A model generated the notes under the pieces. That model ran no database searches, had not been told where the DNA came from, and saw nothing but the letters and a program-made list of their open reading frames with translations. A stretch of DNA of 64,000 nucleotides from Nautilus pompilius (Eukaryota > Mollusca > Cephalopoda > Nautilida > Nautilidae), in contig JACATO010000059.1 in assembly GCA_018389105.1 (NCBI GenBank), positions 558,001 through 622,000 on the forward strand. The letters run 5' to 3'. The position numbers and the translations under genes are program-made. How positions within the stretch are numbered: position 1 is the first letter of the stretch; the number at the start of each line of letters is the position of its first letter. Shown here in pieces: positions 46,901-64,000 of this stretch.

Positions 46901-49900
46901 AATCTGATAGGAACATTTTAAGAATGCATTGAGAGGTTTACTATACTGTATATTTCAATAGAACTGAGAATAGAGCTGCATCTATTCATTATTATTCCAG
47001 GAGTGCCAGAGAAGACTTGGTCATAAATTGCCCCTTGGTGCCTATTTGCTGAAACCTGTTCAGCGGATTACAAAGTATCAACTTCTTTTAAAGGTAAAAT
47101 GAACTGAATTGAACATTTAAAGTGCACTATAGGCCATCAAAACTCTGACTAGTGCTCAAGTTTTTTTGTTTTTTTTTCTGTCTGAGCTGTGATTATGTGC
47201 TGACACTATTTACAGTAATGATAAAAAATGTACTAGTTTGATTAAGGTTAAAATTAGATTAACTACAATTAGAAATATTTGCAGAATCTTACTGGTGCTC
47301 TTACTACTGTATTAAATGACTTTACATGCTTTAATCACCAATTAAAACTGATATTTCCAGGCCATTGTCTCACAAAGCCAAAATGACTTTGTCAGGAATA
47401 TCTTGAAGATATAGCAGGCCAAGTTTTTCTAAACATTTATCAATTATCATATTAATATAGTATAAAAAACAGAGATGCAGTTTTAATTTCTTTTCATTTT
47501 TAGTGTGTAGATTGAAACAATTTTATTTTCTATTTCTTTCTTTCAGGAAATGCTCAAATACACAGAAAATGATCCACCATGCTATGGACTGTTGCAAGAT
47601 GCTCTCAATGCTATGCTGAGTGTTATAAAATATGTCAATGACATAATGCATCAAGTCTCTATTGTGGGATTTGAGGTGAGAAAGAAGTTACAATTAGTCA
47701 TCACTAAAGACTTTAACAATAATATCTGGTGGCCATTTGTACAATATTTTCTGTAACTTTGATTTTATATTGATGTTAAAAGGGAAAGAAACCTGTATGT
47801 TTTCATTGCATTATGATTAACTTTGTTGTACACATGGAGTTGATCTATTAATCATGTCACTACAGTAGCAGAGATTGGATATAGGGAGTGAGATATTAGC
47901 CAGTTTATTTTAATTTTCTCATTTCCAAGAAAAAAGTAGATTTTTCAAAAAGGCAATCTGATTTTATATAAGTATCCAAAAATTGCATTTATTGAATCAC
48001 TTAACCAAATTATTGAAAATGTATTTTAACACTATCATGAGAGATTTTTGTCAGTTCTCTTTTTTCTATTTTTTGTGCCTTTGGTAATTATTCAGTAAGA
48101 TTAATTCATCAGCTTGAAAATAATTAAACTTTATTTTGTGTATGTTACATAAGCAGAAGTTAGAAAATAAACATCTTGCTTTTCATTTGAGTTTTAACTA
48201 ACTTTGTTTAGTAATTACTAATTCCGATACTGTAAACAATAGTTTGCTTTAGTACCTGGTGACCTTTACTGTAACCCACTGGCTTTAGCAGCTAGATCAA
48301 ACATTCTGTATCTGTCCATTCAGAGTATTCTTAATTCTTATTTAAATGTGAAGAATTTGTTTACTACTTGAAAATCTATTGGTGGTTTAACCTGACCATC
48401 ATCTAGGGAAGATTAAAGTGGCACTGCTCATCAAGGAATGAGCAAATCTGACAACAAATAACTATACTGTACATGAGTTAACTGAAGTCAAATAGGTTTT
48501 GTAATTGTTGTTAAGACTGATCAGTTTAATGATTTATATGCTAATTTCACAGCTGCATGTAATCAGCTCTACCTTGTATCTATCAGGCAAGTTCTGGTTT
48601 TGCACAGGGAAAACTGGAGGACCAAGGCAAGCTGCTAATGCAGGACAGCTTTAACATGTGGACAGAGCATAAGAAGGACAAAATCAGGGACTTCCGCTTC
48701 AAGCCCATGCAGCGGCATATGTTCCTGTATGAGAAGTCCATTTTGCTGAGTAAAAAGAAGGATGACAATCAGACATCTGGAAAGGCTATCTACATATTTA
48801 AAACATTGTTAAAGGTGGGTGTCATTTATAAAATTTTAATTTTAATGCAATTTATATGATCATCAGTCAACTAATGAAAAACAAAGAATTTTCTTTAGAA
48901 AATGCTTCTGTTGTAGAATCATGTGAATTTTTAATGAGTTTTTGTTGGATTATTTAAGCCAGTAAGTGGTGGTAGTTTTATTACTTTCCAAGAGTCCAGG
49001 GATGATGTGTAAAGATGCTTCTTTCGGTCACTATTCCTCTCTTTAGGATAGATTTGAATTCAAACTGCTTTTTTATTGAAACATTCAAATAGGCACCTTT
49101 TTATGGATATCTATTAACATTCTACATTCATCTGATATACAGTAAATTAATAAACATTTGATTTTCAAGATGGTTAAAAAGGAAGTAGAACTGCTTTTTC
49201 TCTTAGTAGTAACAAAACAGATATTAAGGAATACTGGAGGCAAAATATTTGTACATTCTATAGAGGTTTAGCTAACTATCAGAGTTTTGCTCCAGGTAAA
49301 GTAAACATTACATGTATTATTTTATAGTCATCTTTTGTTCTCTTTCTTTAGACATCACAGGTGGGTTTGACTGAAAATGTGAAAGGAGACAAAAAAAAGT
49401 TTGAGTTGTGGTTAAGAGGACGTGAAGAAGTTTATATTTTTCAAGTGAGTTTTTTTGTTTTACTTTGATGGGTTAATACATTTTTATTTGATGAACTTTC
49501 AGAAATGTACAGTAGAATACATAATTATTAATCCACCTTATGCTGTTGTAATAAAATATTAACTGTTTTATTAAATTACAATATGCAAAAAAATTATATT
49601 TGAAAGTAAAATTTACTCTAAACAGCTTATAAATAATCAGAGTTCCAGCTAGTCCTTTTTAGCATGGCGCCACGCCATGCCTCTGGTCTACAGCGCCATG
49701 CCTCTTTGTACAATGACATGCCCTAAATTTACAATGCCATGCCCCAAATGGTGCAAAACACAAAGCCCGATTTTCCTTTTTGTACAGGTATACAACCGCC
49801 GCATGCAGAACGTTTTGAGCGTCCCCTGGCGGGAATTTTCCAGCCGCTCTGCGGAGTTGTAACTTGTGCGCGTGCGCATTATACGCATTTAGTTTACGCT

Positions 49901-52900
49901 TCGAAGCATAGCACGAGTACACAAAAGACCTAACAAAAGAGCGGCAGTCTTAAGAGTATTTTTCTTCAACGTTTTAACATACAATCTAGCCTAATTCAAG
50001 GTCGTCAATTAAAGCTATTGCATTTCATTATATTATGAGAACTTGTAAATGTATATATACATGCATTGACTTTGTTGCAAATAAATGTGAACTTGTAGGT
50101 TTGTATGATTGCATAAGTTAGTAATACTTCACTTAACACCTACATCATACTAGTATTAAACTGTTATTTATCAAATTTGTCTTGTCATTAATGCAAATAA
50201 ATGTGCCCACAATACCATGCTTCGCACCGTGACTGCACGCGATGTGCCCTGTTTTATAATATTTATGATGCCCGTTTGAAAACCTAGCTGTAACACTGAT
50301 AATGTTTTCCATTTGCCTTCAAAACTTCTCAAATACTTATTGGCACTGATTCCATTAAATTTGTTATAACTTTTTGCCCAATATGCTCCCTTCTTTTTTC
50401 AATTTATCCCTTAAATTTTTAATTTGTTTAAAATCAGGAAACTGAGAAGATCAAAACATAACTTTGAGGATTTTTTCCATTTCGATAATAGCTTGGCTGT
50501 ATGCATTGGGTCGTGTTGTTCTTGAAGGAGAGAATCAACTCCCATTGGGTACAGCCTGCTGTCTTGCTGAGGTTTTCTTCCTTTTAATGATGCCACTGAA
50601 AGAAGCTCAAACCATCAGGGATACTGACTGTGTTTAACTGAAGAGAGGAGGGGATATGCATTGGGTTTAATTTCCCATCTGAATTACAACTAACATACTG
50701 CTTTTATCATAACCAAACAATTCAAATTTTGTTTCATCTGAAACAATATTTTTTTTCAATCTTCAGCCATATTTTCTTTGTAGAGTTTGGCTCAGTCTAA
50801 GCATTTCAGAATTTTCTGCTTACACAGCAAAGGCTTTCTTACAGTTTGATTCTAACCCTTTTCCCTTTAATCAGCAAATCTCTTGATGATAGCTTTGCTT
50901 CATTAGAATATTCTTACTAGAATTGATATCAAGGAGAATACTATTATTGACAAATTTCTTTCTTTTTCATAATAATGATAAAAGGTGAATGTAATGGTCT
51001 TCCTGTGCTGTATTTTTCTTTTTTCTACCTTAATATCAAGGTGTAAAAGATTGTGGACTATGTTAGCACTATTAGCAGTATTTTAGCTATTTGGAAACTC
51101 TTCTGTTTGTATCATGCCATACACAATGTGACCATCATATGGCTAGCAGTAATATGTATAGTTGTAGTATTGATAAAATAAGAAATCATATTTCATAGGA
51201 AGGGCAAGCAGTCAGATTGTGGCTTCCAAACTCCAACCATTCTCCCCTTTTTTCAAAATACTGGATCTGCTCCTGATAGCTCTCTTAGTCTACTTTGTTT
51301 TGCAGCTGCTTATGTAACAGAAGAATTTGACTCTTTTAGCTACAAATACCTCCTTAGGAGGCATTTTGCATTGTTCTGAAATAATAAAGTATAGATGAAC
51401 TGCAAATATTCTACAAACTTTCTTAAATTAATGAGCAACTATCTATGGCTGCTTGGATAAATCATAATAAATTTGGAAAAAAACAAACTGATTATAAGGC
51501 ATAAATTATGATACCAAAGAACTTTTTTTAAAGTTTGGAGAATGTAAATTTCTTCAACATCCATGTTTTACATAAATATTCATTACAAGAACTTTGCTGT
51601 TTTATTTTAATATTGTTGCAATATGAATAATACTAAATTTGTTGAAATTTAAATAGTAGTTTACATTTTTTTTATTTTTGAAAATATTGAAATTTACCAA
51701 GGTGGATAATAGTTATGGACCCCAATGTATATATTGTAGAATTGATATTGATATTTGTCTGTAAACATATTTTTATTTTTATTATCATTTCAGGCCCACA
51801 GTGTTGATTTAAAGGATATTTGGGTAAAAGAGATCAAGAAAGTTTTGTTGAACCAGTTTGATAAGCTAAGAGGTTTGTAATATTTTTTCTTTATGCTCAT
51901 CAGAATTAAATGTGACATGCCTACAATATACACTACATGACTGCAAAGCATCTTTATCATCTTTGTCTTGTGAATTCTTGAAAATCTTGTCTAATTAATA
52001 ACTGAGAATACAGAGTTTACTTACTTTTTGGAAACTTTCAGCAGGAATTCTTAAAATTATTTTGATATTTCATTAATGGTGGCCAGTAAGACTATAGTTA
52101 CTATCATTAGTATTAAAGATTCTTCCTAAAAACCTATGTAAAGGAAGTTTTTTTTATCTGTTTAGAAGGAAAATTAGCTTAAAAATGTTACATTTGAAAA
52201 CTTTTATTTATTATTTTTAAAATTAATTTGATTAAAATGAATAAATTAGGAAAGATTAAATGTTATCTTCAGCTAGATCAAGCATTAAAACAATTGTACA
52301 TTTTTTACTTCTATCTCTACATTCACAAAAACAACCTAAAGTTTGGTACCAGTGTAAACACAAATTCAAGCCACTTGTCTTACAGTGTTAATTATTTGTG
52401 CAAACTCAAGTTAAGAAAACAGATAATCTTTCTTTTGTGTATTGATTAACATGCTTTAAAATTCTAAAAATTGACAAGCATTTTTTTCTCTCATTTCTAG
52501 TGCATAGACTTAGTATTTCTCACAAGTCTCAAGAAGATATTAGCAAGTTGGTCCGACTCTCTGAGTCTGTGGAAGGCAGGTAGGTAACTGTTCTGCAAAG
52601 ATACCCAAGCTGAAACCATGAAAGAGAGATTATTCTGCAGTTAATAATTGTTCATTTTCAGAGAAATACTAAATACTTTCATGCCAATTTAACACAATAA
52701 CTCATTTTATGGCTAAGTATTTCAAATTGTTTTCTGTATTACAAAATGATTTAAGAAAAGCCTGGGTGACAGAAAAAAAAATCATAATGAATTACTTTGT
52801 TGTTAGAAAATACATTACAAGAGGAGTTAAAAAACAGAAATTAGATGATATTCGTGTTTGGGATTTCATCAGTAAAACTATATTAAACATTTCTGACATA

Positions 52901-55900
52901 CCTTAGTACATTCAGATATCAAAACTTTGCTAGTATTTAATGTAAGCATATCCAATTACTTAAGGAAATTAAAATTGCAATTATATTATCATAGCAAAAA
53001 AGAGATATGTGGCAACCTCTGGAATATGCTGAAAAATTTTAAAAATAAGATCTACCAATGATGTCCTGTCTATTTGGAACTACTAAACTAAACTAAGCTA
53101 AACTTGCTCTTGTGACCTCTAATCAGATTACTCTAGATCATGTTGGAATTGTTTATAGGATTGTGTGAAGACACATAAATAGTCCTTGCCTTTTACTGCT
53201 GTTTTCCTTTGTAGCAATCTTTAAAAAATTTAATCAACTTTTGATATTTGTTTTTAAACTGTTACTACTGTTCCTCTCTGCAGCAGTGGTGACAGCTGGC
53301 GAACCAGGTCATCAATTAGTCAGACTTCATCTAGCAGTGGACCTACTATTCCTATTGGCTTAGAAATGAATTCACCACTTGAGTCTCCTCCTGGTATGGA
53401 CAGTGTTGTTGATGAAGGCTGGTCAAGTGGGGAATTTTCTAATAGCGAAGAGGAAGAAAATTTCTCCAACCACCTTTATGCAGCAAGCAAAGTAGAGGTA
53501 AGAGCACGCATGCGCACACACACTCTCTCTCTCTCTCTCTCTTTCTCTAAGGATATAACTTCATATTTTGGAGTTCCTAGGAAAAAAAATCCTATTGGGC
53601 TTTCATACTCCAAAATTCATATTCATATTGTGCATTGCACAGTTGTTCCCTCAAAGCTGAACATCACATTATTTACCAATGAAGTAGTTTGTTCATCTTG
53701 CTTTAATTGTTAATATTTTGTAATTTATTTTTGGACTACTAGCTTACTAGCTCAGTAAATTTATCTGTTTATAATATTGCTCTATTATTAGTTAGTAATT
53801 TATATGAAACCTAATTATAAAGAGCTTTGAAGGAGATGTACTTCAGTGAGATATTGTAGAAAAAATATTTTGGTACCCCAGAAGAGGATTTGTGGTCTAT
53901 CCCAAAACCTCAGGGCTGCTAGGCACTTGCCTACCCCTACCTTACAGATGTTATGACACCACGCGCGTGCCCACACCCCAGCACACATTTGCTCATCACA
54001 TGCACTTGTAACCATTAGGATTCAACACTCAATCATACAGCTGCATAATGTAAATATTTATTTCTATGGACTAATTTGCAGTGTTGTTTTTATAACTTAC
54101 ATGCATATATTTTCCTAGTGTTTCTTTGGAATTTTTACTTACAGTATGTCTTGGTTTTAGCCTTCTTATCTGCAGCAGTTTTCTGTTCTTGCTGACTACA
54201 TGGCAATGGATGAAGCTGAACTTAACCTTCAGGAGGGAGACATCATTGAGATTTTACGTATAGGAAACAATGGTTGGTGGTACGCACATCACTTAGCCAC
54301 CCATGGGGAAGGCTGGGTGCCATCCACATACCTTGAGCCAGCTGTAGCTAAAAGACCACCACGATCCTCCACATCTAGCATAGGTAAATAATTTTCAAAA
54401 AGCTAGAATTTCATGTCTGTTTTAATAGTCATAACAGTATGCAGTATTGCATTTACTGTCAGTTTAATTCACCAATATGCAAATGATGCCAGTTTTTTTT
54501 TTAATCCCTCATTTTAATATCTGTCTGAATTTTTCAATTAAATATTTGTTTTGATAATTTTGTAATTTAAATGAGATTTTAAAAAAATTAATTAAAAATA
54601 ATCCAATTTTGAAAGCTAAACACATTTTGTTGTTGATTGAGTTTATTCACAGCTCCTGAATCATCAAGTGAGGATATACTATACAAACCTGAAACATCTT
54701 TTCAAATAGGGACATTCTGTAATACGTAAGACTTTGTCCTTCATTAAAAAACAAGTGGTAATAAAAATATATGGAATCTTTTTTTTTAAAGATCAGTCTC
54801 GTCTTTCAGCATAATATGATGAGCATATTTTTTTCAATTTCTAAACTGATGTACTCATAAGAGGGCACCTTCTATCCAATGTGGCATGCACAAATGATTG
54901 GCACTGCTGACGAAGGACTTTTGATATGACATGAGTTCTGATATCACCACTTTTTCTACTCCCATTTCAAAATAGCACAAAAACACAAATATTAATTGCT
55001 AGAGTATTCATGTAAGAATATCTAATTAATTAATTTTTAACTCTATTTGATTGACATTAAATTATAGATATTCATGATGCACTAAAACTGTGGACTTTAG
55101 TGAGTTTTTAACAGTAATGTGCCCTTTCTCTTGGAATATTGTTAATTAAATGGCTATTATCCATCCTCCTATCAGGGAGACTTGAAATTAATGAAATGAC
55201 TTATTATAGTAGTGCCAGAAGTACTGGTTGAGATATCACTTCATGTTGACATTTATCCAACATTATACCATTTCCTTCTATTGCTGTACAATTAGATGGC
55301 GGTGCATATAGTTAAATAGCAGCTTGAAGTTTCAAAGGAATACTTATATATGTATTTTTTTATCTTTCTCTACCAATTAATGATGTAGCTTTTGTGAATT
55401 TCTGATATGATTGGTGCTAAGATATTTCATAGGGAGTTATGGATGTCAAATTTACTGTGTTTTTATTCTAACAAGAATGCTGATATAAAGGTCTTGTATT
55501 AAACATAAGTTGGTTTGCAAGTATGTTATTTTTTCAGTTTTTCCATAACATTTGTACTTAGGACTGATTTACTACATTGTTTGTAAAATTGTTTTAAAAT
55601 TGAAGATGAAAATGTATACAGTGTTTAATATAAAGGTGGTTTTAGTCTTTGATTTTTAAAAATTCTTAGTCTTTGTAAAAATCATCATCTACATGTGTCA
55701 ACAAGTCATTAAATACGTTTAAAATGTCACTTTAATCTAAAACAAGTAGAATCCAAAATCTACTTACTTAAGATGTTTAGTATTAAATTGTATCAGTATG
55801 CTTAAAGACAAGTGTGATAAGAGTCAGTGATGCCGTATTTGTTGAGTGTACCTCAATATTTCTTTTCTCTATCTTAAACCATTTCCTGATTATGTGTATA

Positions 55901-58900: not shown

Positions 58901-61900
58901 GACGTTGCTATGTTTTTTCCTTTCTTCTATTATATAGCTGGAATATTACCTATAGATTTTTATTTGTATATAAATATGGATTGTTTTATTTTGCTGACAA
59001 AAATCTTACTGAAAATTTCTTACCTTTTAGTGAAGGTGAAAGTCAGTAGTGACTAAATAGTAGAGAGATTTTGATTCATTTCTTCCTTACATAGGAAGGA
59101 ACAAAAAGAGGGATGGAAAATACCACAAGTACATTTTATGATAAAGAAATCACACAAAATGCCTTTCACTGTATTTTTCTATTTTAATCTTTTGTTGTAT
59201 CACATTAGAAATTAATGTGCTGCTAAGTCAAACAGTATTTTGATGATTTATTTTTATGAAGTTCCACACACAATTTGCTTTCATGTAACTATTACAAATG
59301 CCATTTACTTTAGCAACCAGTGCTTTTTTTTCAATGGTATATTTTATTAAGTAATTTTCATTGATTCTTAATCAAACTGGATTTATCAATTAAGGCTAGA
59401 AATTTCACACAAAATGATTTCATAGACAAAAGCAGATTGTTTTTGCTGTTTCATGGCTATTGTAGGTAAGTAAAGAAATCTATCATCTTCCTACTCTAAG
59501 AAATAAATAAGTAATTTTTGAAATTAGTTATTTTGGAATTTTTTTAAAACTCATATATCATAATGCTTCATTCATCAGCATTAATTATTGTTGTTTATTA
59601 CAGAAGAATCTTGCAGTTTAATATAGGAATCTAATTTTTCCAGTTGAAAGAATTAAAAAATTTTCATTTTTTTTTTCCAGATATGTCTGTTCATGACCAT
59701 TATTCATCAACCAAAAGATCAAATCCTTACAGGGAATACTTGACTGGTCTGGCAGATGAAACTACAGTATGATAGATAGGGACAGACACTACTGCCAATG
59801 GCTGTGATATTAGAGGGTTCATTTCATATGTTGATTTTTAACATCATATTTATTGTAGTATGCAATTACTAATGTCATTATGCAACAACAGTAAGTGTTG
59901 ATGGTTCAGCCTGTGTAATATATAGCACACATGATCTATGGTCAGTTAGTCCACAATCATAGAAGGTCCACACACTGTGCCATTCATCATCTTTCACACA
60001 CAAACCTGGCTTTGACAGTTTGTACATTTAACACTGAAATCATTTTTTTTCACAATTTGATGTACAATTTTTTCATAAATATGCAAACTTGTGGAGCTAT
60101 ATGCAGAAGGCTAAATATTTGTTCATATTTAATCTGTAAATGCTGTAGAAGAAATTCTTTAGACCAAAAATGCTGATTATTTTATAAGCAAAAAAAATCT
60201 AACAAAAATTCCAGTATCAGTAAGACATGAAAACGGTTCCATGTTTAGTTTAAAAAATGTACCCAAGTGTCTGTATATTGTTTTGTTTCTCTTTTCTTGT
60301 GCATGTCTTGTCTTTATTGTATAGTTTTTAAAAACATGATCATCACTATTTTTTACTAAAAATGTGGTAGTTTTCATATAAAAATGTTTATTTTTACTAC
60401 TATATAATTAGCAAGAAATGTCAACATTAATAGATTTTAATGTAAATTTATTTCACTGCTGAATATCAGTTATTTGCAAACTTCTATCACTGATTCACAG
60501 CACTAAGATCTCAGGGTGAATTCTCGCTAGACACTAGAATTTATTATACCAACTTTCCACTTTGTTTTTTTTTCTTCTTAGAGTGATGTCCAGGTATGGA
60601 TGCTTGCTGTTGTATACTGATGTTATTTACGTTTTTTAGTTGTAATATTTAGTATACAACCCATAAAAATCTTATAAAAGAATACTTTTTTCTGTAATTT
60701 ATTTTGATATTATCATCACCGTCTTCTGTTTTTAGTTACCAGCATTTATCTCTGTCAATTTAGTTTTAACATAATTCTTCCTCAAAAATGGAAGGGTGAA
60801 TATTTCAATTCTGTCTTCTCAGGGTTTTAGATGTAAGATATCAAAAATAAAATGGTAAATGTTCTGTGAATTCCATGTTGCTCACAAGTGTTATTACTGC
60901 ATATAGCTTCATGAATTTGTCCTATAGTACATTGGACTTTTTTCAAGGTTAATCTCCATGTTATCTTTTTCTTCCCACCTTTTATATTTTTTAACTCATC
61001 CAAAGAAATTATTATTTTTAAAAATTTATAATGATCAACATTTCCATTAGGTTAATTCCATTACTGGCATTTTTATAATAATTTTTTTATACATAATGCA
61101 ATGTTTTGGGAAGACAAAGAAATTGGTATTGCAAATGGTTCATACTCATTGTTTTGACTATTCCAACTTTATGGTTATGTTGTGTCATGGCACCAACTAC
61201 AACAACATCACTAATTAAGAATTCAGTCCTTTTGGTCCCTCACTTTATTAATGGGTTCCCTTAGCAAGATTAAATGTCCAGTTCATGAACATTTGATATC
61301 TTTTTTTAAATGAACTCCACAGCTTTTAAATGTTTATAAAAATTACCTAGCATAGTTTATCATGAATATCAAATAGATGGAATTATTGGCAAGCAGATCA
61401 CTGAATGATTATTTTCTTGAGTCCATAAAGCTTGTTCACTGAAATCACATTTAGATGAAATCTGATTATAAAATTTCTTGAACTTCAAAATTAAAAGAAT
61501 TAATGTGTTATAGTTCAGGAATCAACCAAATATGATATTTTGGTAAGATGATGGATTATAAACTCGCTGCTATTTAAAAGGGGAGTTAATTAATGAAATT
61601 GTCAAACTGAATTTATATTATATTCTCGGTTTTAGTTTACACCCTTGTTCTTAGCAGATCCACATCACCGGTACATCCTTCAGGAATTTGGTTTTAGAAT
61701 GAGTTAAGCATAAAAAGTTAACTAATTAATACCTACATTTGTTTTTTGACAACAATGGTATGGTGCGAAAACTTCAAAATACTTTTTTTTTTGAGCCATC
61801 AAAAAAATATTCTCACTATCATTCTGTTTAGCTTGCTTTAATTTTTTATTTATTTATTTTAGTATTTTACAGTAAATACTTTAAATAAACTTAATCACTG

Positions 61901-62917
61901 ATGAGAAAAATGCACTTAAAATGTGTTTATATATCCTTTTTTACTGAAGCCTCTGTTACTCTTGTAGTTACAAAAATAGATGCTGTTAGAATTTGTTTTA
62001 AATTTTATTTAAATTATGAAGTTGTAAATTACTTATCAATTTTCTGTAAATATGTTAACTTTTTAGAGAACACTAAGTGACCTTTATTTTATATCATCAG
62101 TTCTGTTTTATTATTAAATCAGCAAAAAATTTTTTTGCACTGCTATGTTTGGATGGAGCCTCTGAATCTTATACCCTGACTGACACCAGCCAAATCAGTC
62201 AGTTGTTCTAACTGTATGAGGCATTTACAAATGAGCATTGCGAAATGCTCTATGGTAACACTATTAGATTACTTGGTGTTTTGTAACTGTACTCATCATT
62301 GTTCTTACATGTTCAACATCCTTCACTAATACATACTTTAAATTTATGAAACACTATACTGGTTTCAGAAATTTTCCTGTGCATGTCATGTAGATAGTCT
62401 TTTTTTCTGGGGTTTTAAGTTGTACATTTTTATGAGAATCTTTGTATTAAAAGAAATATCTAATAACTGAATTACTATAATGTGTATTGAGCTAACAGTT
62501 TACATTTAAACAAACGGGATTTTAGCCCAAGGCATTATTTGAGCGACTATCCTGATCTTCTATCAGAGCACAAAATCATTTGATCATTTGCTGGAAGAGG
62601 ATTTGGTAACAACATAAATTTCATTGTCTTTTTTTCGTGTTTGTATTATCAGTTAAAATGATAGAGCAAGAGAGTTGGTGTAATGCAAGTTACATAAATC
62701 TAATAATTCATCATATTATGGACTTATAATACTAGTAAATATTTTTACTGCAGTATTGTAAAATATACATCGTTTATGTCTGTTATGTTAGATCTTGCAT
62801 TATGTACACATTTGGCTATATTTTTTAACTTTTCAGGAATTGTGTGCAAACTATCTTTCTGTGATTGAGAAATATGAAATTTTACCTGAAATTCAATTTC
62901 CAGAATATTTAAACTGA
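1863..62917 (+). CDS. MCF2L: DBS/MCF2L-family Rho guanine-nucleotide exchange factor (whole gene span, 5' end outside window)
   Basis: Twenty-three exons plus alternative 3' exons join in frame into a protein with CRAL-TRIO (residues about 1-146 of the visible part), spectrin-type helices (147-500), Gln/Ser-rich linker (510-555), DH (557-747), PH (about 755-873), acidic linker (874-971) and SH3 (about 976-1030). This order is diagnostic of the MCF2/MCF2L/MCF2L2 group. Signature stretches are [10 protein letters not shown] and LTKDVGG (CRAL-TRIO), [11 protein letters not shown] (spectrin region), [20 protein letters not shown] (DH conserved region 3) and [10 protein letters not shown] (SH3). 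Family knowledge: DBS proteins load GTP onto Rho GTPases such as RhoA and Cdc42 at membranes, with phosphoinositide binding by PH and autoinhibition through the N-terminal half. The start codon and the first part of CRAL-TRIO are missing because they lie upstream of base 1. The symbol denotes the family; one-to-one orthology with a particular vertebrate paralogue cannot be claimed. Confidence 0.93.
1978..6338. other. Intron 1
   Basis: This 4.4-kb AT-rich intron contains a degraded pogo/Tigger-like transposon at about 2600-3990. A 122-codon open frame on the - strand at 5738-6106 matches nothing I recognise and is probably chance or old repeat. No in-frame cassette exon was seen. Confidence 0.7.
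2600..3990 (-). mobile_element. pogo/Tigger-like DNA transposon remnant (copy 1)
   Basis: On the - strand, bases about 3077-3106 read [10 protein letters not shown], the block around a catalytic Asp in Tigger/Jerky-type transposases. Immediately before it in element order lie [13 protein letters not shown]-like and KKLLLFVI-like pieces in the expected order, and after it a [12 protein letters not shown]-like piece that corresponds to the family's 'PPNTTS...QPMDQG'. Stops and shifts are numerous, so it is inactive. Ends are estimated; terminal repeats were not identified. Confidence 0.7.
6339..6429 (+). CDS. MCF2L: MCF2L exon B (CRAL-TRIO)
   Basis: The acceptor ctctttacag|a and donor gca|gtaagt give a 91-base exon that completes the Ala codon and ends in phase 0. 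It encodes [17 protein letters not shown] followed by [13 protein letters not shown]. The 'GFVIVVDRR' beta strand and following helix match 'GFILVIDRRRDKW' of vertebrate DBS, part of the CRAL-TRIO ligand-binding core. Confidence 0.94.
6430..7003. other. Intron 2
   Basis: AT-rich intron with a polypyrimidine tract (aatttttttt) before the cag acceptor. No repeat or additional exon is apparent. Confidence 0.75.
7004..7117 (+). CDS. MCF2L: MCF2L exon C (CRAL-TRIO)
   Basis: The exon is 38 whole codons, phase 0 to phase 0, with borders ttttcag|atg and aaa|gtgagt. It encodes [20 protein letters not shown] and [18 protein letters not shown]. '[12 protein letters not shown]' corresponds to 'PTGFFQRTLSDI' in vertebrate DBS. 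The ATG at the first codon is an ordinary internal Met, not a start. Confidence 0.95.
7118..7805. other. Intron 3
   Basis: AT-rich intron; nothing recognisable beyond the splice signals. Confidence 0.75.
7806..7922 (+). CDS. MCF2L: MCF2L exon D (CRAL-TRIO, C-terminal part)
   Basis: Thirty-nine whole codons with borders gattcag|gtt and gct|gtaagt. The exon encodes [20 protein letters not shown] then [19 protein letters not shown]. The 'LT.D.GG' motif followed by a Trp-containing segment is the conserved end of Sec14-like domains in this family. The following intron is only 277 bases. Confidence 0.95.
8200..8459 (+). CDS. MCF2L: MCF2L exon E (end of CRAL-TRIO, first spectrin-type helices)
   Basis: At 260 bases this is the longest single exon, with borders acatttag|gcc and gaaag|gtacat. 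It starts in phase 0 and ends with two bases of an Arg codon. It encodes [20 protein letters not shown], then [20 protein letters not shown] and [16 protein letters not shown]. The 'ETE.PNDV' motif is shared with vertebrate DBS ('ETELPNDV'), and the rest is amphipathic helix typical of the spectrin-repeat region. Confidence 0.94.
8460..10654. other. Intron 5
   Basis: This 2.2-kb intron holds a degraded Tc1-like transposon at about 9290-10340, a (GT)n run near 10608-10622 and a pyrimidine/C-rich tract before its acceptor. The 8700-9110 segment has several open frames but no recognisable family. Confidence 0.7.
9290..10240 (-). mobile_element. Tc1-like transposon remnant, nearly full-length transposase region
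   Basis: On the - strand a start-like MAPNGEV lies at about 10211-10231 and resembles Tc1 transposase N-termini. [10 protein letters not shown] at 9564-9593 is the Tc1 'QDNDPKHT' catalytic block, and a C-terminal [12 protein letters not shown]-like piece lies near 9330-9370. The order and spacing fit one element of about 1 kb. It is interrupted many times and inactive. The terminal inverted repeats were not resolved. Confidence 0.72.
10655..10769 (+). CDS. MCF2L: MCF2L exon F (spectrin-type region)
   Basis: The acceptor ccccacag|a and donor ctt|gtaagt leave an exon that completes an Arg codon and ends in phase 0. It encodes [20 protein letters not shown] and [18 protein letters not shown]. 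'FD.FW..H...L.QCLQLR.FE' is almost identical to vertebrate DBS, one of the best-conserved helices of the spectrin region. Confidence 0.96.
11123..11430 (-). mobile_element. tRNA-type SINE (copy 1)
   Basis: The copy begins with a (cat)n run and has a body around cctttccagtgagaaactag that recurs at 20490 (cctttccaatgtgaaattag). At the right end, the reverse complement contains agtttgactccc, resembling a pol III B box, so the tRNA-like head is at high coordinates and the element is on the - strand. The internal 'agaaaccc..agctggg' piece resembles central domains of widespread metazoan SINEs. The family name is unknown to me. Confidence 0.6.
13130..13360 (+). mobile_element. Penelope-like element fragment (GIY-YIG endonuclease)
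   Basis: Bases 13217-13270 read [18 protein letters not shown], preceded by a Cys-containing FPCSFKQ. This fits the C-terminal GIY-YIG endonuclease of Penelope-like retroelements (typical pattern 'C..C...YVGET...L..R..EH'). Only this short piece is recognisable; no reverse transcriptase was found upstream. Confidence 0.55.
14580..14702 (+). CDS. MCF2L: MCF2L exon G (spectrin-type region)
   Basis: Forty-one whole codons, phase 0 at both ends, with borders tttgatag|ctt and ttg|gtaagt. It encodes [40 protein letters not shown] and L. It aligns with the DBS helix 'FTDIGNSLAHVEHLLRDLASFEEK'. Because both ends are phase 0, cassette exons of whole codons could be inserted after it; see 18446-18484. 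Confidence 0.95.
15340..16060 (+). mobile_element. Tc1-like transposon remnant
   Basis: Bases 15515-15556 read [14 protein letters not shown], the Tc1 'SDESRF..FGSDG' block around the first catalytic Asp. Further along, pieces like KETGPIY and YLDI follow as in Tc1 transposases ('GTGPLYRIEGIMN...YLDIL'). The reading frame is broken repeatedly. This is the only clear Tc1 copy on the + strand here. Confidence 0.72.
18446..18484 (+). CDS. MCF2L: Candidate cassette exon, 39 nt, phase 0 (MCF2L spectrin region)
   Basis: The segment has an acceptor tttattaacag|aag and a donor atgcag|gtaaag. It is exactly 13 codons, [13 protein letters not shown], with no stop, and sits between exons that end and start in phase 0. 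Inclusion would give [22 protein letters not shown] without disturbing the frame. The upstream pyrimidine tract is modest and I know no homologous insert in vertebrate DBS, so this is an inference from splice signals and phase. Confidence 0.42.
19386..19710. repeat. 65-bp tandem repeat, about 5 copies
   Basis: The block gtcattgttatctgtgttgg recurs at 19386, 19451, 19516, 19581 and 19646, exactly 65 bases apart. Copies 2 and 3 carry gatattgatgtc and copies 4 and 5 gatcttgatgtc at their start. The last unit diverges after about 40 bases. Near-identity between copies indicates recent expansion. Confidence 0.95.
20440..20780 (-). mobile_element. tRNA-type SINE (copy 2)
   Basis: This copy shares the body of the copy at 11123 (cctttccaatgtgaaattag, then an aaaccc-containing segment). 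Its reverse complement at the right end contains agttcaaatctcag, an excellent pol III B box, preceded by an A-box-like tagtctaatggttat. That marks the tRNA-derived head and puts the element on the - strand. A gtggaaggaaactggagtaa segment resembles central SINE domains known from several animal phyla. Confidence 0.7.
20887..20925 (+). CDS. MCF2L: Second exon-like 39-nt segment (MCF2L, tentative)
   Basis: After the acceptor-like ttattatcag and before the strong donor atgcag|gtgagt lie 13 open codons, [13 protein letters not shown], in phase 0. It has the same length, phase and ending (MQ, cag|gt) as the segment at 18446. It may be an alternative or a chance pairing of splice-like signals; other AGs upstream would give lengths that break the frame. 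Confidence 0.22.
22007..22198 (+). CDS. MCF2L: MCF2L exon H (spectrin-type region)
   Basis: Sixty-four whole codons, borders tttttcag|aaa and cgg|gtaatc. It encodes [40 protein letters not shown] and a further basic helix with [13 protein letters not shown]. 'GEQLI...[17 protein letters not shown]' is nearly invariant in DBS/MCF2 proteins, making this one of the most diagnostic exons. The donor gtaatc is weaker than average. Confidence 0.97.
22199..24823. other. Intron 8
   Basis: AT-rich intron of 2.6 kb. A (GT/GC)n run lies near 22376-22408. A 24200-24480 segment has overlapping open frames and shares a 'cttattcccaca' piece with 35540, perhaps an old repeat, but no family can be named. Confidence 0.65.
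24824..25015 (+). CDS. MCF2L: MCF2L exon I (spectrin-type region)
   Basis: Sixty-four whole codons, borders ggtttcaag|gca and agg|gtaggt. It encodes [20 protein letters not shown], a Gly-rich turn, and [20 protein letters not shown] followed by [15 protein letters not shown]. It aligns with DBS 'MKWCDEGIYLLASQPVDKCQSQDGAE.AL.EIEKFLETG'. Confidence 0.96.
25016..26749. other. Intron 9
   Basis: AT-rich intron of 1.7 kb with a purine run near 26166-26185 and an AT palindrome at 26341-26364. No exon or transposon was recognised. Confidence 0.7.
26750..26959 (+). CDS. MCF2L: MCF2L exon J (last spectrin helix and basic linker)
   Basis: Seventy whole codons, borders catacacag|gtt and agg|gtagga. 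It encodes [40 protein letters not shown] and a Lys/Gln-rich tail. The 'R..SL.K....QTRPVQ.V.P.P' motif is shared with vertebrate DBS ('RRQASLKKLAARQTRPVQPVAPRP') and marks the passage from spectrin region to linker. The exon is clearly richer in G+C than its surroundings. Confidence 0.96.
26960..30611. other. Intron 10
   Basis: This 3.7-kb intron begins with a 19-bp unit repeated about three times (26985-27041). The open frame of the exon runs through the donor to 27064. The remainder is AT-rich, with no repeat family or exon recognised. Confidence 0.7.
26985..27041. repeat. 19-bp short tandem repeat, 3 units
   Basis: The unit gcctgcttcttgttggtca starts at 26985 and 27004, with an imperfect third unit from 27023. 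It lies 26 bases beyond the exon J donor in a G+C-rich stretch. Confidence 0.85.
30612..30751 (+). CDS. MCF2L: MCF2L exon K (Gln/Ser-rich linker)
   Basis: The acceptor ttattttcag|cat and donor cagag|gttagt enclose 140 bases, phase 0 to phase 2. It encodes [20 protein letters not shown], then [20 protein letters not shown] and DMQDRQR. It joins directly to the DH domain ([11 protein letters not shown]). The low-complexity linker is poorly conserved in the family, so support rests on borders, phase and open frame. Confidence 0.88.
31200..34160 (+). mobile_element. Gypsy-family LTR retrotransposon fossil (broken)
   Basis: Pieces of a Gypsy polyprotein occur in the correct order on the + strand: a gag part with a CCHC-type zinc knuckle (near 31670-31730), reverse transcriptase (about 32300-32900), RNase H (about 33000-33420), the integrase zinc-binding region (about 33590-33830) and a C-terminal pol tail (about 34020-34156). 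It is broken, with many breaks and parts missing. No convincing LTR pair was found, although an aataaagatggcgg piece near 34745 looks like the kind of sequence found in LTRs. The decay suggests an old insertion. Confidence 0.8.
36650..37560 (-). mobile_element. Tc1-like transposon remnant
   Basis: On the - strand a start-like MPRRVDDPD (near 37525-37553) is followed by pieces with the Tc1 order. These include [11 protein letters not shown] around 36910-36945 (equivalent to 'QEDNAPIHTA') and a C-terminal [14 protein letters not shown] at 36739-36780. Many stops and shifts show it is inactive. Terminal inverted repeats were not identified. Confidence 0.7.
37892..37958 (+). CDS. MCF2L: MCF2L exon L (start of DH domain)
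   Basis: The acceptor tttttctag|g follows a long T tract; the donor is tgg|gtaaga. The exon is 67 bases, completing an Arg codon and ending in phase 0. It encodes [20 protein letters not shown] and LW. This is conserved region 1 of the DH domain: 'EL..TE..YV.EL' contains the conserved Glu that contacts switch I of the GTPase in Dbl GEFs. Confidence 0.96.
38098..38132. repeat. AT-rich palindrome
   Basis: The 35 bases read ttttaaaaa, an alternating (AT)n core, then ataattttaaaa, nearly self-complementary about the core. It may form a hairpin or cruciform; it lies 140 bases after the exon L donor. Confidence 0.85.
40050..41720 (-). mobile_element. pogo/Tigger-like DNA transposon remnant (copy 2)
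   Basis: On the - strand NVDET (41201-41215) is the Tigger catalytic block, followed in order by [28 protein letters not shown] (about 40985-41015) and [13 protein letters not shown] (about 40870-40910), which correspond to Tigger 'DNAPGHP' and 'PMDQGVIATFKAY'. [10 protein letters not shown]-like C-terminal part lies near 40610. Low-coordinate sequence (ttataagttggggttaaatt, 40126) resembles the non-coding end of such elements. The frames are broken repeatedly. Confidence 0.78.
42640..42755 (+). CDS. MCF2L: MCF2L exon M (DH domain)
   Basis: The borders are ttgtttcag|ggt and aatga|gtaagt; 116 bases, phase 0 to phase 2. It encodes [20 protein letters not shown] and [20 protein letters not shown]. 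'LFGN...IY.FHN' matches the DBS segment 'DVLFGNMEEIYHFHNR'. Confidence 0.96.
42756..46373. other. Intron 13
   Basis: AT-rich intron of 3.6 kb. The 43120-43700 and 45240-45960 parts have longer open frames on both strands but no recognisable family. A tgaccttttgacct pair lies near 46098. No exon was seen. Confidence 0.65.
46374..46443 (+). CDS. MCF2L: MCF2L exon N (DH domain)
   Basis: Borders gttttttcag|t and agg|gtaagt; 70 bases that complete an Asp codon and end in phase 0. It encodes [20 protein letters not shown] and VNR, equivalent to 'IFLRELENYTDCPELVGRCFLER' in vertebrate DBS. Confidence 0.96.
46697..46792 (+). CDS. MCF2L: MCF2L exon O (DH domain)
   Basis: Thirty-two whole codons, borders ttattag|atg and aag|gtagca. 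It encodes [20 protein letters not shown] and [12 protein letters not shown]; '[15 protein letters not shown]' is nearly identical to vertebrate DBS. The acceptor follows a 40-base C/T-rich tract. Confidence 0.97.
47001..47093 (+). CDS. MCF2L: MCF2L exon P (DH domain, conserved region 3)
   Basis: Thirty-one whole codons, borders attattccag|gag and aag|gtaaaa. It encodes [20 protein letters not shown] then [11 protein letters not shown]. '[17 protein letters not shown]' is the catalytic helix shared by nearly all Dbl-family GEFs; it packs against the switch regions of the GTPase. Confidence 0.98.
47094..47546. other. Intron 16
   Basis: Short AT-rich intron ending in a good tttctttcag acceptor; nothing else noted. 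Confidence 0.75.
47547..47675 (+). CDS. MCF2L: MCF2L exon Q (end of DH domain)
   Basis: Forty-three whole codons, borders tttctttcag|gaa and gag|gtgaga. It encodes [20 protein letters not shown] and a last DH helix [20 protein letters not shown] then GFE. It matches DBS 'EMLKYSRN..G..DLQEALSSILGILKAVNDSMH...I.GY'. Confidence 0.97.
47676..48607. other. Intron 17
   Basis: AT-rich intron of 0.9 kb. It contains an upstream alternative acceptor (tatctatcag|gca at 48586/48587), in frame with the one used for exon R. Confidence 0.7.
48608..48814 (+). CDS. MCF2L: MCF2L exon R (DH-PH junction, first PH strands)
   Basis: Sixty-nine whole codons with borders tttgcacag|gga and aag|gtgggt. It encodes [20 protein letters not shown], then [20 protein letters not shown] and [11 protein letters not shown]. 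'LGKLLMQ.SF.VWT.HK' and '[16 protein letters not shown]' of DBS are both present. An alternative acceptor 21 bases upstream would add seven residues (ASSGFAQ) without changing frame, so the start may be 48587 in some transcripts. Confidence 0.95.
48815..49351. other. Intron 18
   Basis: AT-rich intron of 0.5 kb ending in ttctctttctttag; nothing else recognised. Confidence 0.75.
49352..49444 (+). CDS. MCF2L: MCF2L exon S (PH domain)
   Basis: Thirty-one whole codons, borders tctttctttag|aca and caa|gtgagt. It encodes [20 protein letters not shown] and [11 protein letters not shown], matching DBS 'VGITENVKGDAKKFEIWYNAREEVYIVQ', the later beta strands of the PH domain. Confidence 0.97.
49650..50280. 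other. G+C/CpG-rich insert of unknown origin
   Basis: The left part carries irregular repeats of (g)ccatgcc at about 49670-49745, then CpG-rich sequence with gggaattttcc (49831-49841, resembling a Rel/NF-kB site) and tgcgcgtgcgca (49867-49878, resembling an NRF1 site). The right part is AT-rich with another CpG cluster (gcttcgcaccgtgactgcac) near 50219. It could be a solo terminal repeat, a non-autonomous transposon or a regulatory element; no family can be named. Confidence 0.45.
50280..51010 (-). mobile_element. Tc1-like transposon remnant
   Basis: On the - strand [13 protein letters not shown] at about 50707-50745 is the Tc1 '[10 protein letters not shown]' block, and [13 protein letters not shown] at about 50478-50516 corresponds to 'NDPKHTAK...KW'. 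An [12 protein letters not shown]-like piece follows. The order fits one - strand element; it has multiple interruptions. Confidence 0.75.
51794..51872 (+). CDS. MCF2L: MCF2L exon T (PH domain C-terminal helix)
   Basis: Borders tatcatttcag|gcc and aagag|gtttgt; 79 bases, phase 0 to phase 1. It encodes [20 protein letters not shown] then QFDKLR. '[10 protein letters not shown]' is the closing alpha helix of the PH domain with its invariant Trp ('AWVNEIRKVL' in DBS). The donor gtttgt is unusually weak, but the phase 1 join to the next exon keeps the frame open. Confidence 0.94.
51873..52500. other. Intron 20
   Basis: AT-rich intron of 0.6 kb with a strong tttttctctcatttctag acceptor; nothing else recognised. 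Confidence 0.75.
52501..52579 (+). CDS. MCF2L: MCF2L exon U (PH-SH3 linker)
   Basis: Borders catttctag|tg and ggcag|gtaggt; phase 1 to phase 2. It completes a Val codon and encodes [20 protein letters not shown] then ESVEG. Hydrophilic, helix-forming linker; support is from splice signals, phase and open frame. Confidence 0.87.
52580..53283. other. Intron 21
   Basis: AT-rich intron of 0.7 kb that ends in a tandem ctgcagcag acceptor. No repeat family recognised. Confidence 0.75.
53284..53497 (+). CDS. MCF2L: MCF2L exon V (Ser-rich/acidic linker)
   Basis: The acceptor is cctctctgcag|cag with a second AG three bases on; the donor gag|gtaaga. The 214 bases complete a Ser codon and end in phase 0. 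It encodes [20 protein letters not shown], then a stretch with [20 protein letters not shown]. The acidic '[14 protein letters not shown]' block corresponds to DBS 'DGGWSSAEEQINSSDAEED', a conserved motif before SH3. Confidence 0.95.
53498..54160. other. Intron 22
   Basis: Intron of 0.7 kb with a (CA)n(CT)n microsatellite just past the donor (53515-53545) and a slightly G+C-rich stretch with cgcgcgtg near 53962. No exon recognised. Confidence 0.75.
53515..53549. repeat. (CA)n/(CT)n microsatellite
   Basis: A run of cacacaca followed by about ten ct units, directly after the exon V donor. Confidence 0.9.
54161..54383 (+). CDS. MCF2L: MCF2L exon W (SH3 domain)
   Basis: Borders ttggttttag|cct and atag|gtaaat; 223 bases, phase 0 to phase 1. 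It encodes a complete SH3 domain: [20 protein letters not shown] (the ALYDY/RT-loop equivalent and diverging turn), [20 protein letters not shown] with the paired Trp, and [12 protein letters not shown] with the final GWVPS.Y motif. A Pro/Ser-rich tail [10 protein letters not shown] follows. The exon ends one base into a codon, and several downstream acceptors fit that phase. Confidence 0.97.
54653..54725 (+). CDS. MCF2L: MCF2L alternative exon X1 (C-terminal tail type 1)
   Basis: The acceptor tttattcacag|ct fits phase 1 from the SH3 exon and the donor aatac|gtaaga leaves phase 2. It encodes [20 protein letters not shown] then FCN. Ending in phase 2, it is compatible with the exon at 56246 and not with the one at 59681, where it would hit a stop after a few codons. 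If the donor is not used, a stop follows at 54727-54729. Confidence 0.72.
54726..56245. other. Intron between alternative tail exons
   Basis: AT-rich 1.5 kb without recognisable repeat or exon. Confidence 0.65.
56246..56282 (+). CDS. MCF2L: MCF2L alternative terminal exon X2, ends GFRRDI
   Basis: The acceptor gactgttttcag|t fits phase 2 from exon X1. The frame reads [12 protein letters not shown] and stops at 56280-56282. The 56245-56330 stretch is distinctly richer in G+C than its surroundings, as expected of exonic sequence. Some 260 bases further an aataaa (56543) could serve polyadenylation. I infer a short isoform ending here; no transcript supports it yet. Confidence 0.6.
56543..56548 (+). 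terminator. Candidate polyadenylation signal for tail type 1
   Basis: An aataaa hexamer about 260 bases after the GFRRDI stop codon. Such hexamers are frequent in AT-rich DNA, so its use is uncertain. Confidence 0.35.
57346..57630 (-). CDS. Possible first exon of a nested antisense gene in a CpG-containing island
   Basis: On the - strand an open frame of 63 codons runs from Met at 57537, with an inner Met at 57519. It contains [20 protein letters not shown], then [20 protein letters not shown] and [11 protein letters not shown]. It runs into tgcag|gtgagt, a perfect donor, at about 57351/57350. About ten CpGs and balanced base composition set it off from the AT-rich surroundings, as at an unmethylated promoter. 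I recognise no family and found no obvious next exon. The alternative is a piece of an inserted repeat or captured gene fragment. Confidence 0.35.
59681..59772 (+). CDS. MCF2L: MCF2L exon Y (C-terminal tail types 2 and 3; ends ETTV if read through)
   Basis: The acceptor, a T-rich tract ending ttccag|at, fits phase 1 directly from the SH3 exon and completes an Asp codon. It encodes [20 protein letters not shown] and LTGLADETT. Reading on gives Val and TGA (59767-59772), so the C-terminus is ETTV, a class I PDZ-ligand consensus (S/T-X-V). The same bases gtatga are a plausible donor at 59767, in phase 0, leading to the 12-nt exon at 60582. The same exon can thus end two ways. Confidence 0.75.
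59773..60581. other. 3' UTR of the ETTV form / intron of the longer form
   Basis: AT-rich 0.8 kb. It would be 3' UTR when the exon Y donor is unused and an intron when it is used. It ends in a strong polypyrimidine tract ttttttttcttcttag. Confidence 0.6.
60582..60593 (+). CDS. MCF2L: MCF2L candidate 12-nt microexon (SDVQ)
   Basis: Twelve bases, agtgatgtccag, lie between a very strong acceptor (tttttttttcttcttag) and a donor cag|gtatgg. They encode SDVQ in phase 0, matching the phase-0 donor of exon Y (ACA|GTATGA) and the phase-0 start of the last exon. Either inclusion or skipping keeps the frame. Long pyrimidine tracts are typical of regulated microexons. Confidence 0.55.
60594..62836. other. 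Last coding intron
   Basis: AT-rich 2.2 kb, no repeat family recognised. An aataaa at 60846 could end the ETTV transcript. Confidence 0.6.
60846..60851 (+). terminator. Candidate polyadenylation signal for the ETTV form
   Basis: An aataaa about 1.1 kb after the ETTV stop. Use is uncertain in this AT-rich context. Confidence 0.3.
62837..62917 (+). CDS. MCF2L: MCF2L candidate terminal exon Z, ends FPEYLN
   Basis: The acceptor acttttcag|gaa opens a phase-0 frame of 26 codons: [20 protein letters not shown] then FPEYLN, with stop TGA at 62915-62917. Joined to exon Y with the microexon it reads ...[16 protein letters not shown]. The frame is open from the acceptor, phase matches and the peptide is balanced in composition, unlike random translations here. 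A cag|gtaaat donor lies only 17 bases after the stop (62934), so the 3' UTR may be spliced. Confidence 0.6.
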   Translation, partial: ELCANYLSVIEKYEILPEIQFPEYLN

Positions 62918-64000
62918 TGTTTCATTCGTACAGGTAAATTTTAAAAATAACTTTGAAATTACTTGTTATCAGTGTTTCATTTTAAATTTCCAGCTTACAG
63001 TAAAGGACCTTTGTTATGGTACATATTGTGTAATTCAAAAACCTGTAGTAGTAGTAGTATCTTTTTTTACAAATACAGTATGTAAAAAGAATGTTTTTGA
63101 TTGAACCTTCGAGTTAGTTTTTCACACTTTTTACTGCCCCTCCTTTAAACGTTTCTTTCCCAAGTTCATTACTCTGCATCAGAAAGTGGATGATAAGAGC
63201 TGGTTGCTGTTCTAACAGATCAAAAAGAAAAAAGCTATAAAAGTTTTTAACATTATTAAGTTGTGATATTTTATATTCATTACAAATAGGGGTTTGTTTG
63301 GTTACTCTCTGGTTAAAGTGATTACTTTCCCAAAAAAATTTTAAAAGGGGGTATAAATCAATTTCAAGGTGAAAAAATTATTATAAAAGTATTTACTTAA
63401 AGAATACAAAAATTAAATATTTTTTCAATTAAAAAGATTCTATATGTAAATAAATTGTCTTAATGGTTAAAATATATGATGAATTTAAATTTATAGTCAC
63501 TTTTGCTATATTCTGTTATCTTAAAATAAAATATCAATTTTTTAATGTATAGCTTGTTGATTTGCTTTTATATATTGAAAAATAAAAAGGACTGTTACTT
63601 TATCTAGATCTGATGCTCATTCCTACAAGTCTTAGGAGAAATATCCTAAAGACCAAGATTATCAAACTTGCTGCTGCTATTATAGACACGCAAAATTGTA
63701 CTGGCTTGCTTTCATCAGATATTTATATTACATTAACTTGTAGAAAGGGAAAATTCCTTTTACTTGTTTAATAGCTGGTTGTGCAAGTGATAGATTAGGA
63801 ATTGATAATCAGGACAGATATCTCCCATTAAAATATGAAAAACTATGTAATAAATATCAAGTTTGTGTTGATGGAGCCTTCAAAATTCTTTTACCTGCCA
63901 GCATCAAATGTTTTTTCTGTGATAACATATTGTAGAAAAACTAAAATGGAAAACATTGTGATATTAATTAGGCAAAAGGTGTATAATTTTTTTTAAAAAG
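62918..64000. other. 3' flank / possible 3' UTR
   Basis: AT-rich 1.1 kb with an aataaa at 63525-63530. No further coding exon, RNA gene or second gene was recognised before the window ends. Confidence 0.6.
63525..63530 (+). terminator. Candidate polyadenylation signal for the FPEYLN form
   Basis: An aataaa about 610 bases after the last stop codon. It would be used only if the transcript is not spliced at 62934. Confidence 0.3.

What the first reader, a model, noticed from the sequence alone, without database searches (positions are those of the whole stretch)
59681..59772. A splice donor that doubles as Val-stop and creates a PDZ-ligand C-terminus (ETTV)
In exon Y the last bases aca|gtatga can be read in two ways. 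As coding sequence they give T-V-stop, so the protein ends ETTV, which fits the class I PDZ-binding consensus S/T-X-V. As a splice site, gtatga is a phase-0 donor that leads to an in-frame microexon and a longer tail. One splicing decision would therefore switch PDZ binding of a Rho GEF on or off. I know of no description of this arrangement in the DBS family.
Basis: partly seen in the sequence, partly recalled or inferred. Interest (0 to 1): 0.75.

Follow-up and report, generated by a model that had tools for sequence, protein, structure and literature searches.

The report
DBS RhoGEF tail with PDZ ligand
The last recognisable exon of an animal DBS-type Rho exchange factor gene ends in a good PDZ-docking tail (ETTV); the claimed overlapping splice donor is weak and comes automatically from the codon for valine, so a splice switch remains possible but unproven.

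Summary
Exon Y (59681-59766) joins in frame to the SH3 exon (54176-54383) of a gene that is clearly a DBS (MCF2L) orthologue. Read on, it ends ..LADETTV-stop, a class I PDZ-ligand sequence. Such endings are rare by chance: of 3107 + strand stops outside the modelled exons, 15 follow [ST]-x-V and 0 follow [DE][ST]-x-V.

The dual reading itself is no coincidence. Valine is GTN, so every C-terminal Val plus stop looks like a phase-0 GT donor, and every phase-0 donor reads as Val. As a donor, ACA|GTATGA is poor: below all 13 donors of the DH-PH-SH3 chain on PWM and U1 pairing; second lowest of 19 on a wider PWM.

Best reading: exon Y is the terminal coding exon and carries a PDZ ligand. The microexon and longer tail are unproven but not excluded: under one scoring both occurred together in only 1 of 300 shuffles, and the tail's codon score matches exon Y's. 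No RNA, own genome or orthologue was available. Splice-controlled PDZ tails are known in Rho GEFs (Kalirin-7, Syx2). Interest is low to moderate.

The parts
30612..42755 (+). Exons 30612-30751, 37892-37958, 42640-42755: linker and start of the DH domain
   Evidence: In-frame chain with consistent phases; Pfam RhoGEF E 4.5e-41 and best solved match DBS 1rj2 E 8.4e-111 for the joined protein
46374..47675 (+). Exons 46374-46443, 46697-46792, 47001-47093, 47547-47675: rest of the DH domain
48608..51872 (+). Exons 48608-48814, 49352-49444, 51794-51872: PH domain
   Evidence: Pfam SOS1_NGEF_PH E 6.3e-31; alignment to DBS
52501..53497 (+). Exons 52501-52579 and 53287-53497: linker between PH and SH3
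   Evidence: phases fit
54176..54383 (+). SH3 exon; donor TAG|GTAAAT in phase 1
   Evidence: Pfam SH3_1 E 1.8e-12; sequence
59681..59766 (+). Exon [30 protein letters not shown]
   Evidence: acceptor in the top 0.3% to 1.7% of AGs depending on PWM; joins the SH3 exon in frame; codon score inside the range of the core exons
59767..59772 (+). gta tga: Val and stop giving C-terminus ETTV; also the weak GT donor candidate
60582..60593 (+). Candidate 12-nt microexon (SDVQ), unproven
   Evidence: acceptor top 1.4%, donor CAG|GTATGG top 6.4% (core PWM); shuffles 2.7% or 14%
60846..60851 (+). First AATAAA after exon Y, followed by GU-rich DNA: possible poly(A) signal of the ETTV form
   Evidence: sequence
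62837..62913 (+). Candidate alternative last coding exon ([26 protein letters not shown] and stop), unproven
   Evidence: acceptor top 0.9%; GC 0.26, below all 13 core exons; no Pfam match up to E 1

Best explanation
Exon Y is the terminal coding exon of a DBS-family Rho GEF. The protein ends ..LADETTV, a class I PDZ ligand that would dock the GEF (DH-PH plus SH3) to a PDZ scaffold and so place Rho/Cdc42 activation at a membrane or junction site. The 'splice donor' is simply the GT of the valine codon followed by the stop codon and is probably not used. Shown here: the gene family, the in-frame exon chain, the ETTV reading and the weakness of the donor. Inferred: that exon Y is expressed as the last exon, that ETTV binds a PDZ domain, which scaffold it binds, and which GTPase is served (recalled for DBS, from no call).
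For: DBS identity: Pfam RhoGEF, SOS1_NGEF_PH, SH3 and the Spectrin_5 'DBS-like' domain; the four best solved structures are all named DBS. Thirteen core exons plus exon Y read through without a stop, every phase fitting. Class I endings are rare by chance (15 of 3107; with acidic -3, 0 of 3107), and none of the other 19 modelled donors (two of them doubtful) gives [ST]-x-V when read through. Donor: PWM 0.42 against 4.09 to 11.76 for the 13 core donors; U1 duplex -2.9 against -5.7 to -13.6 kcal/mol; 4 of 9 consensus matches against 5 to 8. None of the 18 donors kept has a stop triplet at +4 to +6 (list, omitting one script error). AATAAA at 60846 followed by GU-rich DNA gives the exon a possible 3' end.
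Against: In the wider sets exon Y's donor is not the lowest on the PWM: second lowest of 19 (2.01; one accepted donor scores 0.81) and third lowest of 21 in an earlier set that held two doubtful sites. The downstream chain is somewhat better than chance: both pieces in 1 of 300 shuffles with the core PWM. The tail exon's codon score (top 5% of random open frames) is no worse than exon Y's (top 7%); with another training set these were 8% and 14%. No AATAAA or ATTAAA lies between 59773 and 60582, only weaker variants. Exon Y by itself is not statistically proven (Y-like feature in 50% of resampled copies), and rival phase-1 terminal ORFs exist, for instance at 57467. The vertebrate DBS tail, as I recall it (no call), has no such ending.
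Confidence: 0.58

Rival explanations
1. Dual use: exon Y is a composite terminal exon. When its weak donor is skipped, the protein ends ETTV and the RNA is cut downstream (for example after 60846); when the donor is used, a 12-nt microexon and a last exon replace the PDZ ligand with [30 protein letters not shown].
For: Both downstream pieces are in frame with good acceptors. Microexon-like 2.7% and last-exon-like 18% of shuffles, both together 1 of 300. A weak donor is what a regulated site could look like. Tail codon score in the top 5%.
Against: Weakest donor of 14. With the other PWM the shuffle frequencies are 14% and 12%. Tail GC 0.26, below each of the 13 core exons, 0.33 to 0.48. No Pfam match to the tail. 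The candidates were chosen after looking. No RNA.
Confidence: 0.22
2. Exon Y is an ordinary internal exon, always spliced at GTATGA; ETTV is a chance read-through reading of intron sequence.
For: All phase-0 donors read as Val, so the V costs nothing; the downstream chain is in frame.
Against: Needs an immediate stop after Val (0 of the 14 other modelled phase-0 donors, two of them doubtful), Thr at -2, Glu at -3 and a very weak donor all at once.
Confidence: 0.08
3. Exon Y is not an exon; the true terminal exon after the SH3 exon lies elsewhere (57467, beyond 64000, or another site).
For: Nine other phase-1 acceptor plus ORF candidates of at least 20 codons lie in 54384-64000; Y-like features arise in 50% of resampled copies with the core PWM.
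Against: Exon Y has the best acceptor of the ten candidates (12.1; the next is 10.1), a codon score in the range of the core exons and a PDZ-ligand ending with a chance of about 0.5% or less.
Confidence: 0.12

Closest known systems
DBS / MCF2L (Dbl family Rho GEF)
   Same: Spectrin-like repeat of the DBS-like Pfam family, DH, PH and SH3 in the same order (order recalled for DBS); DH-PH aligns over about 320 residues to solved DBS chains.
   Different: The tail after the SH3 and its ETTV end; the vertebrate DBS tail, as I recall it (no call), has no class I PDZ ligand.
Kalirin-7 (Trio/Kalirin family)
   Same: A spectrin-repeat Rho GEF with a PDZ-binding C-terminus; its isoforms arise by alternative 3' exons and it has a terminal exon of its own (PMC3324156, passages).
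   Different: Kalirin uses distinct alternative 3' exons; here the proposed switch would be read-through against use of a donor at the stop codon.
Syx / PLEKHG5 and C. elegans RHGF-2
   Same: Rho GEFs with C-terminal PDZ ligands (class I SDV in RHGF-2, binding MPZ-1); a low-abundance Syx2 splice variant lacks the motif (PMC3282746, passages).
   Different: Another Dbl subfamily; the passages I saw do not describe a donor that overlaps the stop codon.
PMCA4b (ETSV tail)
   Same: A splice variant ending in the nearly identical class I ligand ETSV, which binds Dlg1 PDZ domains 1 and 2 (PMC11904214, passages).
   Different: A calcium pump, not a Rho GEF; the splice mechanism is not described in the passages I saw.
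Composite terminal exons / intronic polyadenylation
   Different: Not shown here to occur.

Membership tests
DBS/MCF2L Rho GEF | DH domain | tested here: met
   PF00621 E 4.5e-41, profile positions 1-180 of 180
DBS/MCF2L Rho GEF | PH domain directly after the DH | tested here: met
   PF22697 E 6.3e-31
DBS/MCF2L Rho GEF | DBS-type spectrin-like repeat upstream | tested here: met
   PF23289 Spectrin_5 'DBS-like' E 9.5e-29 in exons 24824-26827
DBS/MCF2L Rho GEF | N-terminal CRAL-TRIO (Sec14) domain | tested here: inconclusive
   Only a weak partial match, CRAL_TRIO_2 E 0.035, and none for the 37-residue exon at 1863; the 5' exons were not fully modelled
DBS/MCF2L Rho GEF | C-terminal SH3 | tested here: met
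   SH3_1 E 1.8e-12
DBS/MCF2L Rho GEF | Closest solved relatives are DBS rather than Trio/Kalirin | tested here: met
   DBS E about 1e-110, Trio 1.2e-66
Class I PDZ ligand | C-terminal [ST]-x-[hydrophobic] | tested here: met
   ETTV-stop, if exon Y is terminal
Class I PDZ ligand | Binding to a PDZ domain | not testable with these tools
   needs a pull-down or peptide assay
Composite terminal exon (dual donor/stop) | Donor competent for splicing | tested here: inconclusive
   Weakest of 14 by PWM and U1 energy, second lowest of 19 by the larger PWM; weak is not the same as dead
Composite terminal exon (dual donor/stop) | Spliced and read-through RNAs both present | not testable with these tools
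   no RNA data; own genome not held
Composite terminal exon (dual donor/stop) | Conservation of both readings in orthologues | not testable with these tools
   the one scan I ran, of prokaryote genome contigs, found no relative; no collection of animal genomes is offered

The most novel reading that the evidence does not exclude
A regulated switch in which the last six bases (gtatga) serve both as Val-stop completing a PDZ ligand and as a deliberately weak phase-0 donor, so that recruiting U1 in some tissues swaps the ETTV tail of DBS for a microexon plus 26-residue tail and releases the GEF from its PDZ scaffold.
Probability: 0.2. Interest if true: 0.5.

Novelty: new member of a known kind. 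Interest (0 to 1): 0.25.

Why it matters
If exon Y is the true C-terminus, DBS in this lineage joins the Rho GEFs that are localised by PDZ scaffolds, which points to where it activates its GTPase. If the switch were real, it would be a compact case of stop codon and donor sharing the same bases. There is also a general caution for sequence reading: because valine codons begin with GT, every protein ending in a valine PDZ ligand carries an apparent phase-0 donor at its stop codon, so such overlaps need RNA evidence.

Tried and rejected
Searching the window's own genome: not held. Searching for relatives of the SH3-tail peptide in prokaryote genome contigs, hoping for animal contamination: 195 pattern matches, none confirmed. 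PDB search with the exon Y peptide alone: nothing up to E 10. Pfam for the alternative tail: nothing up to E 1. Repeat origin of exon Y or of the last exon: no second copy in the window by blastn at E 0.01. Codon scoring cannot separate the readings: exon Y and the alternative tail score alike, and the 13 core exons range from -0.37 to 0.24 bits per codon when left out in turn.

Literature. MCF2L with PDZ: 41 papers hold both words; I saw the listing of 20 (titles and abstract starts), nothing relevant, and opened none of those 20. PDZ motif and alternative splicing in Rho GEFs: 12 of 12 listed. RhoGEF, PDZ-binding motif and 'Catching a GEF': 3 of 3. PMCA, PDZ-binding and splice variant: 9 of 9. 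Composite terminal exon, PDZ, intronic polyadenylation: 15 of 16. C-terminal PDZ-binding RhoGEFs: 10 of 10. Dbl family, MCF2L, splice variants: 4 of 4. RhoGEFs and PDZ-binding motif: 15 of 28. In these listings, and in passages of six papers (the passages of PMC7000694 and PMC7226772 bore little on the question), I saw no description of a stop-overlapping donor in DBS. That holds for this open-access library and these terms only. I looked for a published figure of how many Rho GEFs carry a PDZ ligand and found none in what I saw.

Corrections of my own. The first donor sets held a doubtful site (8427) and a probably wrong one (26827; the exon probably runs on to 26959). In one search exon Y scored below all 14; third lowest of 21. 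One search also placed the donor after the last exon one base off. One search's 19-donor list held a script error (a false site at position 11) and is not used, apart from its +4 to +6 list with that row left out; one search gives the 18-donor set, which leaves out 8427, 26827 and 26959.

Full report
What was checked. Exon Y begins at 59681 after a pyrimidine-rich acceptor; the last sense codon within the putative exon is aca (59764-59766), followed by gta tga. In the frame carried over from the SH3 exon the protein ends ETTV.

The gene. I rebuilt the 3' part of the gene from splice sites and reading frames, helped by recalled DBS motifs as search patterns. Thirteen exons from 30612 to 54383, plus exon Y, join without a stop and with every phase matching. 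The joined protein matches Pfam RhoGEF (E 4.5e-41), SOS1_NGEF_PH (6.3e-31) and SH3_1 (1.8e-12); upstream exons match Spectrin_5, a DBS-like spectrin repeat (9.5e-29). Against solved structures the four best hits are DBS DH-PH entries at E about 1e-110, well ahead of Trio at 1.2e-66. The N-terminal CRAL-TRIO domain was only weakly seen (E 0.035); I did not model those exons fully.

Why the double reading is not a coincidence. Valine is GTN and a splice donor is GT. Any protein that ends in Val-stop therefore shows a phase-0 GT at its end, and any phase-0 donor read through gives Val. In this gene all 14 other modelled phase-0 donors (two of them doubtful) read as Val; none is followed at once by a stop. 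On the + strand 227 of 3480 GTs are followed by a stop triplet in that frame, and GTATGA occurs 13 times, against 23.6 expected from base composition.

What is unusual is the ETTV ending. Among 3107 + strand stops outside the modelled exons with four open codons before them, 15 fit [ST]-x-V and 0 fit [DE][ST]-x-V. From the composition of this gene's own protein, the expected frequencies are 0.6% and 0.1%. None of the 19 other modelled donors gives [ST]-x-V on read-through. C-terminal PDZ ligands are established in other Rho GEFs (RHGF-2, Syx: PMC3282746, passages; Kalirin-7: PMC3324156, passages). This favours ETTV being a real C-terminus.

Strength of the donor. With a PWM from the 13 phase-checked donors of the DH-PH-SH3 chain, ACA|GTATGA scores 0.42, while the 13 score 4.09 to 11.76 when left out in turn. 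Its duplex with the U1 5' end is -2.9 kcal/mol against -5.7 to -13.6, and it matches 4 of 9 consensus bases against 5 to 8. Of all + strand GTs, 22% score as high on the PWM and 32% pair as well with U1. With 18 donors it is second lowest of 19 on the PWM (2.01; one accepted donor scores 0.81); in an earlier set of 20 that held two doubtful sites it was third lowest of 21. A weak donor is what a Val-stop constraint would leave by accident, but it is also what a regulated site could look like.

Evidence that leans towards a longer form. The microexon 60582-60593 and the candidate last exon 62837-62913 are both in frame. In 300 order-2 Markov copies of the region, a microexon-like pair as good as the observed one (3-30 nt, in frame) occurs in 2.7%, a last-exon-like feature in 18%, and both together in 1 of 300, with PWMs from the core exons. 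With the larger PWMs and 500 copies the first two are 14% and 12%. The thresholds were set at or near the observed values after the candidates had been picked, so these figures flatter the candidates. The tail's codon score lies in the top 5% of random open frames and exon Y's in the top 7% (8% and 14% with another training set); the core exons range from -0.37 to 0.24 bits per codon, so this measure does not decide. Against the tail: its GC is 0.26, below all 13 core exons (0.33 to 0.48), and it has no Pfam match. The first AATAAA after exon Y is at 60846, with GU-rich DNA behind it, so an ETTV transcript using it would have a 3'UTR of about 1.1 kb that runs over the microexon; only weaker variants lie before 60582.

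How sure exon Y itself is. Its acceptor is in the top 0.3% to 1.7% of AGs, depending on the PWM, and is the best of ten phase-1 terminal candidates. A feature of about that quality still arises in 11% to 50% of resampled copies. Its reality therefore rests on the acceptor, the phase and the PDZ-ligand ending together, not on any one of them.

Mechanism. I hold that exon Y is the terminal coding exon and that the ETTV tail docks the GEF to a PDZ scaffold (0.58). The dual switch gets 0.22, exon Y not being an exon 0.12, and constitutive splicing at GTATGA 0.08. These odds are my judgement, not a computed posterior. PDZ binding and the scaffold are inferred; the near-identical ETSV of PMCA4b binds Dlg1 PDZ domains 1 and 2 (PMC11904214, passages).

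Novelty. A Rho GEF with a PDZ-ligand tail, and RNA processing that includes or removes such a tail, are both known. Here the new part would be only that DBS has one in this lineage. From the searches named in Tried and rejected I found no description for DBS, but the library is open-access only and I saw listings and passages, not whole papers. No orthologue or RNA evidence was within reach.

Noticed in passing
window 62837-62933: A 97-nt exon-like stretch with a strong acceptor (top 0.9%) and a strong donor CAG|GTAAAT (top 0.9%), although each of its three frames holds a stop (one search lists no open frame); in the frame after exon Y the stop falls 20 bases before that donor.
   Followed up: partly
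window 57467-57640: A 57-codon open frame in the SH3 exon's phase, with a good acceptor and GC 0.51: a rival terminal exon, or a repeat fragment.
   Followed up: partly
window 26750-26959: The exon first ended at 26827 probably runs on to 26959 (..[18 protein letters not shown]..), which resembles vertebrate DBS as I recall it.
   Followed up: partly
window 19377-19698: Tandem array of five 65-bp units, 97% matches.
   Followed up: no
window 31200-34150: Broken retrotransposon-like open frames on the + strand inside an intron; one piece (32965-33090) matches RT_RNaseH_2 below the curated cut-off (E 5.9e-06); the other six pieces scanned in that call, from here and from 40.4-41.7 kb on the - strand, matched nothing up to E 0.01.
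   Followed up: no
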